Shown here in pieces: positions 17,353-30,357 of a stretch of DNA of 64,000 bases. Origin of the DNA: Agroathelia rolfsii. Taxonomy: Eukaryota > Basidiomycota > Agaricomycetes > Amylocorticiales > Amylocorticiaceae. The first letter of the stretch is position 1. Each line of letters starts with the position of its first letter. The position numbers and the translations under genes were made by a program. The notes under the pieces were generated by a model. The model searched no databases and was not told the DNA's origin. It saw only the letters and a program-made list of their open reading frames with translations. The DNA is taken from the NCBI GenBank assembly GCA_018343915.1, contig JABRWF010000006.1, positions 3,782,001 through 3,846,000 of the forward strand, read 5' to 3'.

Positions 17353-20300
17353 ATGGCCACAGTCGATGACTTCAAGCCTTTGGAAACAACTCTACTGACA
17401 CTCTCGGACGTTTATGCAGTCAGAACGCCAACTGCGCCGTTTTTGCTGGTCTCCGAGGATTCATACATCGATCATGCTTCGTTCCAAGTCTTAACCCAGT
17501 CCCTCCTTCCCTTAAGGCTACTAGCCCTGGCCGATGCTGTGAAAGAATCATCCCGCATAATGCTGATTGCTCGCAACTCTCCACTTGTACCACTCTTTCT
17601 GTGGTCTGCATGGTCTATCGGCATATGTGTTGCTTTAGTTCCTCCAACAGCTGATGCTGGCTTGTGGCTTCCCATGGTCCAGCTAACCCAACCTTCCGCA
17701 GTCTTTACTATGCATTCCATTCATGACGAGGTCAAAATTAGGCTAGCTAAAACGGGACTCCCCGTCGTGATTATGGAACAACTCCTTCCTACGTCTCCAA
17801 TTCCTTCGAAGTCGCCATTTCAAGCCATGATCCACTCTGCCCACAGCCTTCTTCACAACTCTTGTGTAGAAAGTAGCGAGCTATCGATTACACCACCCAG
17901 TCCTCTTGCACCTAATGTCATTCTTTTTACATCATCTGCGGTTGATGCCTCGACACTTAAGTGTGTGGAGTATAACCATAGCATGTGCATCGCTTCATCC
18001 TGGAGGACTGTCGTTGCTTTTGGGGGGCGCTCCTTCGTTGAGACGCCCAAAAGGCACCTCGGCTGGCTTCCTTTGAGCCATTGCTTTGAATTAACAATTG
18101 CATTGATGTAGGATACAGATTCTTCTCTGAATTTACGACTTTTCTAAAGCTTCCTCTCTAATTATAGGGGAATCGTATTGAGATCTGGAGGAACGTACGT
18201 ATTTCACGACCCATTGATAACATCTTCAGAGTTTGCTTTCGATGTTCCACTACCCGATTTGATTCTAGAGTCCCTGAAGTACCACTGGCCGATCCATTCC
18301 CTTACATCTGTCCCCGCTATCATTGAAAACATGATTCCTCTTCCGAACTCTCATCTTTTGAAGTCCCTCTCATCTCTTTGCGTCGCTGGAGCTTCATCGC
18401 CCCCACGTCTAATTGAGTGGGCTGTGGACCGCCAAGTGCCATTTATTGATCTCGTTGGCGCAACCGAAGTGGCTGGCGCTTTCTGCACGCGAAAAGTTCG
18501 AAATGGGAAACTTGAGGATGGCTTTACTCTGTGTCACGATCTAATGGGCGTCCTAGAGAAGGAAAGGGATTCGGACGAATTTGGTGAGCTTATTGTGGTT
18601 GGAAAGGTAACGAAGCTGTTTATTATTCACTAAAGATTTACGTTTGTTGATTTGAAATATCACTAGATACTTCCTGTATCATATTTCCGGAATACAAGCA
18701 GACGGGAGTACAAATACGATGCTGCATCGGGCGTCACTACTTACCGCACCGGCGATATTTACGAAGAGGTCCCACAGGCCTTTAATGGACGTGTCATCAT
18801 CTCAGGCTCGCCATTGCCGAAATTCTTGGAAGATCATGTATCCAGAAGCATGCATGGGATTGTGTACCTCTCCCGTGCCGACGATATGCTTGTTTTTTCT
18901 ACTGGCATCAAGCTGGACGTGATTCCGCTGGAGAGAGCACTAGGGGGTTTCGACTCTATCAAACGAGCCGCACTTGTGCTTGACAATACAGCCAGCGGCA
19001 TCATCATGCTCATCGAGCCAGCAGACCCTGACGCAGATCAACTTTCGAGCACTAATACTCAGGGTGTGACAGAAGAGAAGTGGGAGGCGATTAAGCAGGC
19101 TGTGGACAAAACAAATAAAATGCTACCATACGAGAAGCGAATGCCCTCATCCGATTCGGAGAGGGTTGTCCTCGTTGACTCACTTCCTGTGACGACCAAG
19201 TTAACGCTTCACCGGAAGAAACTAGAGGCCATTTTGGCTAAAAACCATGGATTGTGGCCTTTGGAAAGGAGGAGGCGTATAGTTACGTGCAAGCCTACTG
19301 CTTTTCCCAATGCATCCGTCAAAACATCCCAGTCGCCAGAGACAAAAGCAAACCTATCTCCACAAATGATTCGGATCAGGGAGACCCTCGTGCCTCTTCT
19401 CGCTACTATCTTTTCTTTGCCAGCTCAAGAGATTCAAAACCAGTCATTCTCTCTTGTTAGCCTTGGTCTTACTTCAATCTCTTCTGTACGCCTTTCGACA
19501 ATGCTTAAAGAAACATTTTCAGTCTCTATATCGCAAGCTATGCTATTTGGCATTCATGACATTAACGAACTAGCAGAAATTGTTCTAAGGAGATCCGAAG
19601 AATCAGGAGACAAACTTGGTGTCGCTCCAAAGGTCAAAAGACACCTCATTAACCCTTCCCATTTTCCGCAGCCTCTTGTAGCAGCCAACGATGCCGACGA
19701 CATTGTGATAACCGGCGCATCGTGTTGCTTCCCAGGTGGGATTCAGGATCTTGAAGATCTCTGGCAAGCACTTCTTATGCCTAAAGTCCATCTGGAAAAT
19801 ATTGTACAGTCCACCCCACCCGCATCTAGGTGGTCAAGCAAAAGCGAAAACAAGAGAGCTTATGATTTTGAGACAAGTCTACCGATGGCATACCTCCAGG
19901 ATGAAAATTATGATGTGAATGCTAGTTTAGCGGCATTTTTTGGTCTCAAACCCATCGATGTGGAAGCAATGCCTCCAAATCATCGTCTTGTAATGATGCT
20001 AGGATACAAGGCTTTAGAAGATGCCGGAGTGAAACCGAAAAATGCTGAGGACAATGCGTTAGCTGAAGGTGAAAGTTGGGCAGTGCTCACAAGTCTGAAT
20101 AACTCCGGATGGGCAGAAAGAAATTTAATCGAGAAGGATTTGAGAGGTAAGTTGGAATCATTTTCAAGCTGTATGAGACTTCCTATGAAATTGCTGACAA
20201 TCTTGTATAGCATACGGCAGAAACATCGAAAATTTTGTTGATGAGAATGCCGGTGCCCGTCTGTCTTATTTTTTGAACCTAAGCGGACCTGCGCTCGAAA

Positions 20301-27900: not shown

Positions 27901-30357
27901 TGGCGGCCAAGAGCAAGCACAGGATAGCACTACACTTTGCGACGTCTTTCAGCAGTACTTTCGGATACAAAGGCGCCGAGTATGTCCCAGAGAGGCCACT
28001 GGAGCTGAACGTCACATATGCGCTTGATCAGGTATGTCTTCTTACTCTTGTCTTCCCCAATACTTATTTTGTTTTTCTCCAGGGATACGCCGTGTCGAAA
28101 ATGGCCGCAGAGCATATGCTCTATCGCCTTGCCCTTCAGGAGGGAGCAAACTTCGAAGCACACATCGTCCGCATCGGTCAAATCAGTGGTGATTCATCGA
28201 CGGGAGAATGGGCCATCGATGAAATGATACCCATGATGATGGCATCTCTCCCAGCTCTGGGTGCGGTCCCTATGGAGCTTCCAGACGTCTCTTGGGTCCC
28301 TGTCGACATTTGCGCCCGGGTCATTGGTGACCTCATCGTACCTAGCTTCACTACCGGAAATATCGAAAGCTCGAAGAGTGTTTTTGTCTACAACGTTTCG
28401 AATCCACGAGTGTTTGATTGGAAAGCTACGACGGATCTTTTCGCTCAAGCTGCAAAGCTTCCTCCTCCGCGTCTCGTAAACCTCAAAGACTACGTCTCTC
28501 TTATCCTGAAAGCCCAGAGAAAATATGGAGATCAAACAGCCACTTATGTCCGTGTTGTTCGCCTTCTCGCTTCTTTCCTCGGAGGCTTAGATGGAAAGGG
28601 ATGGCTTAGCCATTACGCCCTCCTTGACGTATCCTCAACGCAGAAAATCAGCCCTTCTCTGGCCACTTGCTCACCTATCGATAGCAAGATGGCTGGTCTC
28701 CTGATGGGCAAGATCATGGAGAGAATGCACGAGGAGATACACCCACTCGAAAATTTGTCTCAGCAATCGCTGGAACATCCGTCTCCAATCCTTGACGGTT
28801 CCAGTCGCTACGTGCTCTTGTTCGGGCCCTGGTCAGATCTAAATGAAAAGTCAATCACACCTGGAGTAATGGGTGTTTGGGCAAGACTTCAGAAGACGGC
28901 TGCGTCAGTTGTACACGACGTATTTGAGAAACATACCTGGTTGAATACGCAGTGAGTAGTAGCTACAATTACCGTGGTATCCAAGCTGATTACATACATA
29001 TAGAAATAAAGATATTTTGAACAACAGTCACTCATTCAACAGGATGCTTCTCACGCTCGCTCTTCAGCTTCACAACTTCGATCAGTTTACTTGCAAGGGT
29101 ATTCAACCCCATGCACTCATTGGCTACTGCTTTGGCGAATATGCAGCTTCAATCATTGGCGGCTACATGACTGAGAGGGAGGCCGTAGATGTGCTTACAC
29201 GTCGGTCACTCGCACTTTCCGAAGGCATCCGCCTGCGAAAGGAAAGCGGGACTAGCAAGCCAGGGGCCATGTTGAACGTGTTTGCGGGTACTGATGTCGT
29301 CCGCCGACATGTTGTTCTCCTTCCTGAGCCTGCGGCCGAGATTGCTATTCACGCCGGGCCGTCGCACACCATCCTTTCTGGAAATATCGAGGTCATTACC
29401 CGAGCCCAGGAGCTCTTCAAGACTTCTGGTATCCGTACAATCCCTGTCTCTACAGACATACCATTCCACTCGCGTGAAATGGACTCTGCCGTCGATCTCT
29501 TGACAATGCTCACCCCCGATTACCCATCTTTCACTCGTTCTCAGACCAGGACACAATACATCTCTGGCGTAACTGGACGGACTCTTCCCTCATCTGGAAT
29601 CACAATCAGATACTGGGCCCGGCATATGCGCGAACGGGTCAAGTTTCTGGAATGCATCAAGACAGTCCAAGCGCAATTAGTAGGAACAAGCTCGAAGTTG
29701 GGTGGTGCTGTCTTCATTGATGTCGGGCCCTCGGGTACACTCAAGAAGATGATTTCGAGATACCAATGGGACGGGCTTGCTTGTGAGCAGAGCGATGTCT
29801 ATTTCGAGCGCGATTACGATCCACCGCTTTCTCACTTGACAGTGCCCCTATCTTGTGAAATCATAGCCAAGTCACTTGAATCCACCGTTACTTCTGGAAG
29901 GCTTAAGGAACCTATAGCTTGTTCGCTTCTCGAAACAACTCGTTCGTGCTCAGACTCCGAGTCTTTGCCTGATTCATCTAGATCACGGTCTTTGTCACCA
30001 CCTCCGGTGTCTCCTATACCTTCCGGCCTGTCACTCGGTAAGTTTCGAGCCTTATATTGCATTCAAAGCGAGATTCACTAACTTGACGTCACACAATTCA
30101 TAGAAACAGCATCGGAAACTGGCATCGACGCCAATGACGACGCCGTACAAGTTTGTCTTGGCCTGCTGTCGCGACTCTTCGGCTATCCACAGGGCAATAT
30201 TCATCTGCTCCAGGAGACGTTCAACTCGCTCGGACTTGGCTCTCTCGATTTCGTACAGCTTCAATCCGAGTTTGAAGCAGCCATGGGTGTCACTTTCCCG
30301 CCTTCTTCTTACGCATCCGAGCAGCCAATTTTGAGAATACTACAGGATCTCAAATAG
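24931..30357 (+). CDS. ketosynthase - ACP - thioester reductase - relocated acyltransferase - ACP (PKS gene 2)
   Basis: Nine exons close exactly in frame: 24931-25477, 25539-25702, 25775-25982, 26040-26192, 26245-26406, 26470-28031, 28083-28951, 29004-30037 and 30104-30357 (1650 aa). The ATG at 24931 is used because the in-frame codon at 24925 is GTG. Domains: a ketosynthase from residue 5 (Cys173 in GACASGG, His308 in AHGTGT, His349 in GHTQ); a KS-AT linker followed directly by the post-AT sequence PLYPFQREYHW with no AT between; a carrier domain with Ser679; a thioester reductase with GATGFLG (772) and YAVSK (Tyr934, Lys938); then an acyltransferase at about 1170-1460 with Cys1264 in GYCFGE and His1377 in PFHS; a Ser-rich linker; and a second carrier domain with Ser1613. 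The reductase should release an aldehyde or alcohol. Cys as AT nucleophile is known from starter-unit AT domains. Product unknown. Confidence 0.9.

What the first reader, a model, noticed from the sequence alone, without database searches (positions are those of the whole stretch)
17353..30357. Two-protein polyketide assembly line with the acyltransferase displaced to the far C-terminus
Seen: gene 1 is A-ACP-KS-AT(dead); gene 2 is KS-linker-ACP-reductase-AT-ACP. In gene 2 the KS-AT linker runs straight into the post-AT motif PLYPFQREYHW, so the AT has been removed from its normal site, yet a complete AT follows the reductase. In gene 1 the AT is in place but has no nucleophile. The pair therefore has only one AT with a nucleophile. 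Known: iterative fungal PKSs normally have KS-AT adjacent; AT-less modules served by a separate AT are known from bacteria. Inference: the C-terminal AT of gene 2 supplies both proteins, a fungal counterpart of trans-acting AT logic.
Basis: partly seen in the sequence, partly recalled or inferred. Interest (0 to 1): 0.88.

Follow-up and report, generated by a model that had tools for sequence, protein, structure and literature searches.

The report
Fungal polyketide pair, one complete acyltransferase
Two neighbouring fungal genes look like the two halves of a small polyketide factory in which the usual loading domain has lost its catalytic residues in one half and sits at the far end of the other; relatives of each half occur in other fungi, so this is a conserved, uncharacterised design and not an assembly error.

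Summary
Gene 1 (17353-22355, 6 exons, 1566 aa) is A-ACP-KS-pseudoAT. Gene 2 (24931-30357, 9 exons, 1650 aa) is KS-linker-ACP-thioester reductase-AT-ACP. Both belong to conserved families: seven gene-1 relatives (six named fungi, one unnamed source), all with a Ser-less G-E-G elbow, and three gene-2 relatives with the same fused layout (Gloeophyllum, Heliocybe, Fomitiporia). In gene 2 the KS-end to post-AT distance is 174-204 residues, against a median of 454 in other fetched PKSs. The two KS families group together in an unrooted tree. Best reading: a two-subunit PKS from an old duplication with complementary losses; gene 1 activates and primes an acid, two KSs extend it, gene 2's Cys-AT supplies malonyl to the pair, the reductase releases an aldehyde or alcohol. 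Sharing of the AT is inferred, not shown; the genome holds other ATs, and the pair was seen side by side only here. The gene-2 layout is already listed in print (IgPKS3 of Inonotus, 'KS-ACP-TE-AT') without a mechanism. New variant of a known kind.

The parts
17353..22355 (+). Gene 1, A-ACP-KS-pseudoAT, 1566 aa; exons 17353-18107, 18168-18606, 18667-20146, 20211-20342, 20404-20766, 20824-22355
   Evidence: GT-AG, open frame; 7 relatives align along the whole length
17353..19242 (+). Adenylate-forming (A) domain, residues about 1-590; altered P-loop FTSSAVD..LKCV, TGD and C-terminal Lys576 kept
   Evidence: Pfam AMP-binding and AMP-binding_C_3; motif columns in 8 of 8
19372..19590 (+). ACP of gene 1, Ser668 (GLTS; no Asp before the Ser)
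   Evidence: PP-binding; Ser in 8 of 8
19690..21170 (+). KS1 with Cys926, HGTGT and K..GH motifs
   Evidence: Pfam; Cys and K..GH in 8 of 8, HGTGT in 7 of 8 (the annotated Heterobasidion protein lacks four residues where the window gene has an intron)
21468..22289 (+). PseudoAT: AT fold without the nucleophile; elbow GEGVGE at 21672-21689
22308..22328 (+). Post-AT motif LPGYQW, close to the end of gene 1
24931..30357 (+). Gene 2, KS-linker-ACP-R-AT-ACP, 1650 aa; exons 24931-25477, 25539-25702, 25775-25982, 26040-26192, 26245-26406, 26470-28031, 28083-28951, 29004-30037, 30104-30357
   Evidence: P0002, P0122, P0123 same layout
24943..26504 (+). KS2 with Cys173, HGTGT, K..GH
   Evidence: 4 of 4
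26505..27101 (+). KS-AT linker running straight into the post-AT motif PLYPFQREYHW (27066-27101): AT-less site
   Evidence: span 204 residues against a median of 454; residues 3-639 align with 20-648 of the 652-residue chain 4z37_A
27177..27380 (+). ACP1 of gene 2, Ser679
   Evidence: 4 of 4
27531..28706 (+). Thioester reductase (NAD_binding_4), TGATGFLG and Y934xxxK938; the 3' limit is approximate
28806..29778 (+). Displaced AT: elbow GYCFGE (29122-29139), Arg1289, His1377
30136..30354 (+). ACP2 of gene 2, Ser1613
   Evidence: PP-binding, two stretches in gene 2; Ser in 4 of 4

Best explanation
A two-subunit, non-reducing-type PKS that arose by duplication of one KS gene followed by complementary loss. 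Gene 1 keeps the loading end: its A domain activates a carboxylic acid and puts it on the gene 1 ACP, and KS1 takes it. Gene 2 keeps the extending and releasing end: KS2, ACP1 and a thioester reductase. Malonyl units for both subunits come from the single catalytically complete AT of the pair, a Cys-nucleophile AT at the C-terminus of gene 2, via ACP2 and ACP1 and possibly by loading gene 1's ACP in trans. Two KSs and two extender ACPs fit a starter plus two malonyl units, released by the reductase as an aldehyde or alcohol. Shown from sequence: domain order, AT loss, Cys-His-Arg set, AT without nucleophile, family conservation, grouping of the two KS families. Inferred: duplication history, substrate, chain length, sharing of the AT.
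For: Gene 1 elbow GEG in 8 of 8; Arg position Ala and His segment a gap in the profile alignment. Gene 2 AT: Cys1264, Arg1289, His1377 in 4 of 4; Arg and His are also shared with the 6 other PKSs of the 10-row alignment. AT-less KS anatomy in 4 of 4. The 8 KS1s and 4 KS2s group apart from 23 other KSs at 100/99 in an unrooted tree. The pair is tandem, same strand, 2575 bases apart. Pfam finds no ACP after KS1, and gene 1 ends just after its post-AT motif. Beyond the pair the genome search for KS gave one place on C1 and two read as FAS (a lower bound).
Against: No genome other than this one was seen to hold both genes; the two sets of relatives share no named species, though the word-based search is lossy. 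Other ATs exist in the genome. Pairwise, KS1 and KS2 are only 32.5% identical, and some bacterial KSs score as high with KS2 (P0011 226 bits, window KS1 213), so the grouping rests on the tree, which lacks HispS. A dispersed repeat lies between the genes, so adjacency could be recent. Substrates are not predictable: the best PDB match of the A domain is only 5.3e-4. Gene 1's ACP lacks the usual Asp before Ser.
Confidence: 0.5

Rival explanations
1. The two proteins work in separate pathways; gene 1 gets malonyl from another AT (the C1 PKS or FAS) or only makes a starter that is handed elsewhere.
For: Relatives of gene 1 and of gene 2 were found in different species; other AT matches are present; a dispersed repeat sits between the genes.
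Against: Tandem here; the KS1 and KS2 families group together; domain losses are complementary.
Confidence: 0.2
2. The C-terminal Cys-AT is not a malonyl loader but a chain-transfer or starter transferase, like the SAT domain (GxCxG) of fungal NR-PKSs, or an editing hydrolase.
For: Tyr-Cys elbow of the GxCxG type (PMC10401856, passages); in 247 fetched proteins the elbow pattern gave 276 Ser and 3 Cys, all three Cys in gene-2 relatives. The fold list also holds the acyl hydrolase PksD and chains that contain a SAT, so fold does not decide.
Against: The Arg that binds malonyl in ATs (role recalled) is kept in 4 of 4; the best sequence matches are PKS ATs and malonyl transferases; Pfam gives Acyl_transf_1 and no SAT.
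Confidence: 0.17
3. The gene 2 AT loads only gene 2's own ACPs; KS1 uses malonyl on gene 2's ACP2, so the carrier, not the AT, acts in trans.
For: AT and ACP2 are neighbours in 4 of 4; no ACP was found after KS1.
Against: Gene 1's own ACP could serve iteratively, as in other fungal PKSs (recalled); no data separate the two.
Confidence: 0.1
4. Decayed or mis-modelled genes.
For: Gene 1's AT lacks its nucleophile.
Against: Open frames, 13 of 13 clean introns; 7 and 3 relatives with the same features; the elbow lies inside a 1532-base exon, so splicing cannot hide a GHSxG box; exon 7 of gene 2 holds the end of the reductase and the first AT strand in one frame.
Confidence: 0.03

Closest known systems
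IgPKS3 of Inonotus glomeratus (KS-ACP-TE-AT), with similar proteins in I. hispidus and I. obliquus (PMC12634532, passages read)
   Same: Reported domain order matches gene 2: KS-ACP-releasing domain-AT
   Different: In the passages seen: no C-terminal ACP, no Cys elbow, no partner gene and no mechanism; sequence not at hand, so identity with the gene 2 family is untested
Hispidin synthase and its orthologues (AMP-ACP-KS-AT-ACP, or with added KR and DH; PMC9866795, Results and passages read)
   Same: Gene 1 has the same first four domains
   Different: Gene 1's AT lacks its nucleophile and no C-terminal ACP is present; sequences not compared
Bacterial trans-AT PKS
   Same: KS with linker and post-AT motif but no AT; 9 short spans without an AT elbow in 8 other fetched proteins, most of them named as bacterial, look alike
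   Different: The AT is fused to one of the synthases, is not free-standing, and has a Cys nucleophile; KS2 falls outside the sampled bacterial clades
Fungal NR-PKS SAT domain (GxCxG or GxSxG; GxGxG in some; PMC10401856, section 9 and passages read)
   Same: Cys elbow as in gene 2; a retained domain with Gly in place of the nucleophile, as in gene 1
   Different: Gene 2's AT keeps the Arg, matches Acyl_transf_1 and lies at the C-terminus; gene 1's pseudoAT is in the KS-AT position
SwnK-type A-T-KS-AT-KR-ACP-R synthases (recalled, nothing seen here)
   Same: A-loaded PKS with terminal reductase, as the two genes taken together
   Different: One protein with an in-place AT and a KR

Membership tests
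trans-AT type I PKS | KS module without AT between linker and post-AT motif | tested here: met
   Gene 2 family, 4 of 4, span 174-204 against a median of 454
trans-AT type I PKS | Free-standing AT protein | tested here: not met
   AT is fused in gene 2 in 4 of 4
trans-AT type I PKS | AT loads carriers on other polypeptides | not testable with these tools
   needs biochemistry
cis-AT iterative fungal PKS | Catalytically complete AT directly after KS | tested here: not met
   Gene 1: no nucleophile in 8 of 8, Arg and His not aligned; gene 2: no AT there in 4 of 4
SAT domain | Cys or Ser elbow GxCxG/GxSxG | tested here: met
   GYCFG, 4 of 4
SAT domain | Match to the Pfam SAT model and N-terminal position before KS | tested here: not met
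   Pfam gives Acyl_transf_1 and no SAT for gene 2; the genome's two SAT hits are on C2 and C8; position is C-terminal
Hispidin synthase type PKS | AMP-ACP-KS-AT-ACP on one protein | tested here: not met
   Gene 1 ends after the pseudoAT
Hispidin synthase type PKS | Sequence relation of KS to HispS | not tested
   No HispS sequence was fetched

The most novel reading that the evidence does not exclude
An obligate heteromeric fungal PKS: after duplication of one A-ACP-KS-AT-ACP-R ancestor, copy 1 kept loading and copy 2 kept release, both lost the in-place AT activity, and KS1 and KS2 pair as a heterodimer fed by one relocated Cys-AT that loads malonyl in trans. It would be a fungal, independent invention of AT sharing, with the pseudoAT of gene 1 kept as scaffold.
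Probability: 0.15. Interest if true: 0.82.

Novelty: new variant of a known kind. Interest (0 to 1): 0.6.

Why it matters
Type I fungal PKSs are usually taken to carry their AT next to the KS and to act as single chains (general knowledge, recalled). A conserved pair in which one AT has lost its catalytic residues and the other has left its site and swapped Ser for Cys would make AT sharing, pseudoAT function and split assembly lines testable in fungi, and would point to an uncharacterised metabolite class.

Tried and rejected
An AT tree of 37 rows, to ask whether gene 2's AT is the relocated ancestral AT: long branches, no answer. PDB search with gene 2's linker-to-post-AT stretch alone: only one match, CurL at E 0.82, so the AT-less reading rests on motif spacing and the 4z37 match (that 4z37 is a trans-AT KS is recalled). 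A first spacing script used too narrow a pattern and gave no span for either family; the widened one is, in which P0241 still gave no span and P0246 gave 633. Two of its 11 short spans (P0011, P0083) are false, the motif lying at the start of an AT. A looser Cys pattern also hit P0079, P0180 and P0231 once each; by eye these are not AT elbows. From the KS tree I dropped three of 38 rows as shorter than 380 residues (P0151, P0200, P0233). A-domain substrate: no usable PDB relative. Paper searches (open-access library, top rows only, 20 at most of up to 342): only PMC12634532 lists the gene 2 layout, and no listed title or abstract start describes a fungal AT-less PKS with a shared AT. Neighbouring frames: 20 of the 98 frames of 85 aa or more outside the finding were scanned with Pfam, so the cluster limits are not settled.

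Full report

AT of gene 1. The elbow is G-E-G in 8 of 8 members; the second Gly of GxSxG is kept in only 3 of 8. In the profile alignment the Arg position is Ala in gene 1 and the His segment falls in a gap, and the family has no invariant Arg or His in this region. The elbow sits inside a 1532-base exon, so mis-splicing cannot hide a GHSxG box. The seven relatives (Dentipellis, Hysterangium, Collybia, Heterobasidion, Rickenella, Mycena and one unnamed source) are 35-39% identical to gene 1. A domain without nucleophile kept for structure has a precedent: the apparently inert GxGxG SAT of ACAS is needed for activity (PMC10401856, section 9 read).

AT-less KS and displaced AT of gene 2. Three relatives, Gloeophyllum trabeum, Heliocybe sulcata and Fomitiporia mediterranea, show the same domains in one protein (4 of 4 with the window), which speaks against AT-ACP being a separate gene. 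From the KS-end motif to the post-AT motif they span 174-204 residues; of 181 spans found in 154 of 236 other fetched proteins the median is 454 and 11 are under 300, of which 9 have no AT elbow within 450 residues and look AT-less. Gene-1 members span 375-397 in 6 of 8, 633 in one, none found in one. The displaced AT has elbow GYCFG, Arg1289 and His1377 in 4 of 4. In 247 fetched proteins the elbow pattern gave 276 with Ser and 3 with Cys, all three in gene-2 relatives. Sequence and fold searches place it among PKS ATs and malonyl transferases, with the acyl hydrolase PksD and SAT-bearing chains also in the fold list. That model (mean pLDDT 74.9) lacks the first strand, which lies in the previous exon, and is of low confidence after residue 268.

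Relation of the two genes. In an unrooted tree of 35 KS domains the gene-1 family (8) and gene-2 family (4) are each 100/100 and stand together, 100/99, against 23 bacterial and other fungal KSs. The sample was drawn from hits of these queries and lacks HispS; pairwise scores alone do not separate them clearly from bacterial KSs (KS1 against KS2 32.5% identity). An AT tree could not place the displaced AT. Gene 1 has A-ACP and lacks ACP-R; gene 2 has ACP-R and lacks A-ACP: complementary loss after duplication is the simplest story (inference).

Other ATs. In the same genome PF00698 also matches C8 and C2, each with a SAT match about 4 kb away, which I read as fatty acid synthases; C1, where frames read by eye look like a highly reducing PKS with a GHSAGE elbow (no family scan, and the KS match there reads through five stops); and a weak, unidentified hit on C4 below the cut-off. 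So the gene 2 AT is the only complete AT of the pair but not of the cell.

Mechanism. Seen in sequence: A, three ACPs with Ser, two KSs with Cys-His-His, one AT with Cys-His-Arg, one reductase with TGATGFLG and YxxxK motifs. Inferred: starter on gene 1, two malonyl extensions, reductive release. Gene 1's ACP has Ser but lacks the usual Asp before it, so its modification should be checked. Pfam shows no KR, DH or ER in either protein.

Literature. PMC12634532 (passages) lists IgPKS3 as KS-ACP-TE-AT in Inonotus glomeratus, with similar proteins in I. hispidus and I. obliquus, and reports its expression in different media; the passages give no product. PMC9866795 (abstract, Results section and passages) gives HispS as AMP-ACP-KS-AT-ACP. 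I saw no description of a fungal pair with a shared displaced AT in the listings of the ten searches named under Tried and rejected; the library is open-access only.

Verdict. Real, conserved, and partly explained; the sharing of the AT remains an inference.

Noticed in passing
window 23255-23716: Dispersed repeat between the two genes: 46 further rows of match in the genome, mostly to query bases 56-236 and 385-517 of 23200-24100, some rows being pieces of one copy.
   Followed up: partly
window 33165-34016: Alpha/beta hydrolase frame about 2.8 kb downstream of gene 2; best PDB match is GrgF (6lzh, 7e-08). By eye its elbow reads GSAMSG, with Ala where I would expect the nucleophile.
   Followed up: partly
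window 1636-2448: Cytochrome P450 frame on the minus strand (2e-35), about 15 kb upstream of gene 1.
   Followed up: no
window 49542-53409 and 63298-63999: CHAT-domain and tetratricopeptide frames on the minus strand, and a second CHAT frame at the window end.
   Followed up: no
L018 (G000 C1:337501-347400): The only other PKS-like locus in the KS search (a lower bound): elbow GHSAGE, with an ACP-like and a hydrolase-like stretch at its end, read by eye.
   Followed up: partly
P0002, P0122, P0123 and gene 2: KS2 active site reads ACASG (3 of 4) or ACSSG (1 of 4) instead of the ACSSS seen in the gene-1 family.
   Followed up: no
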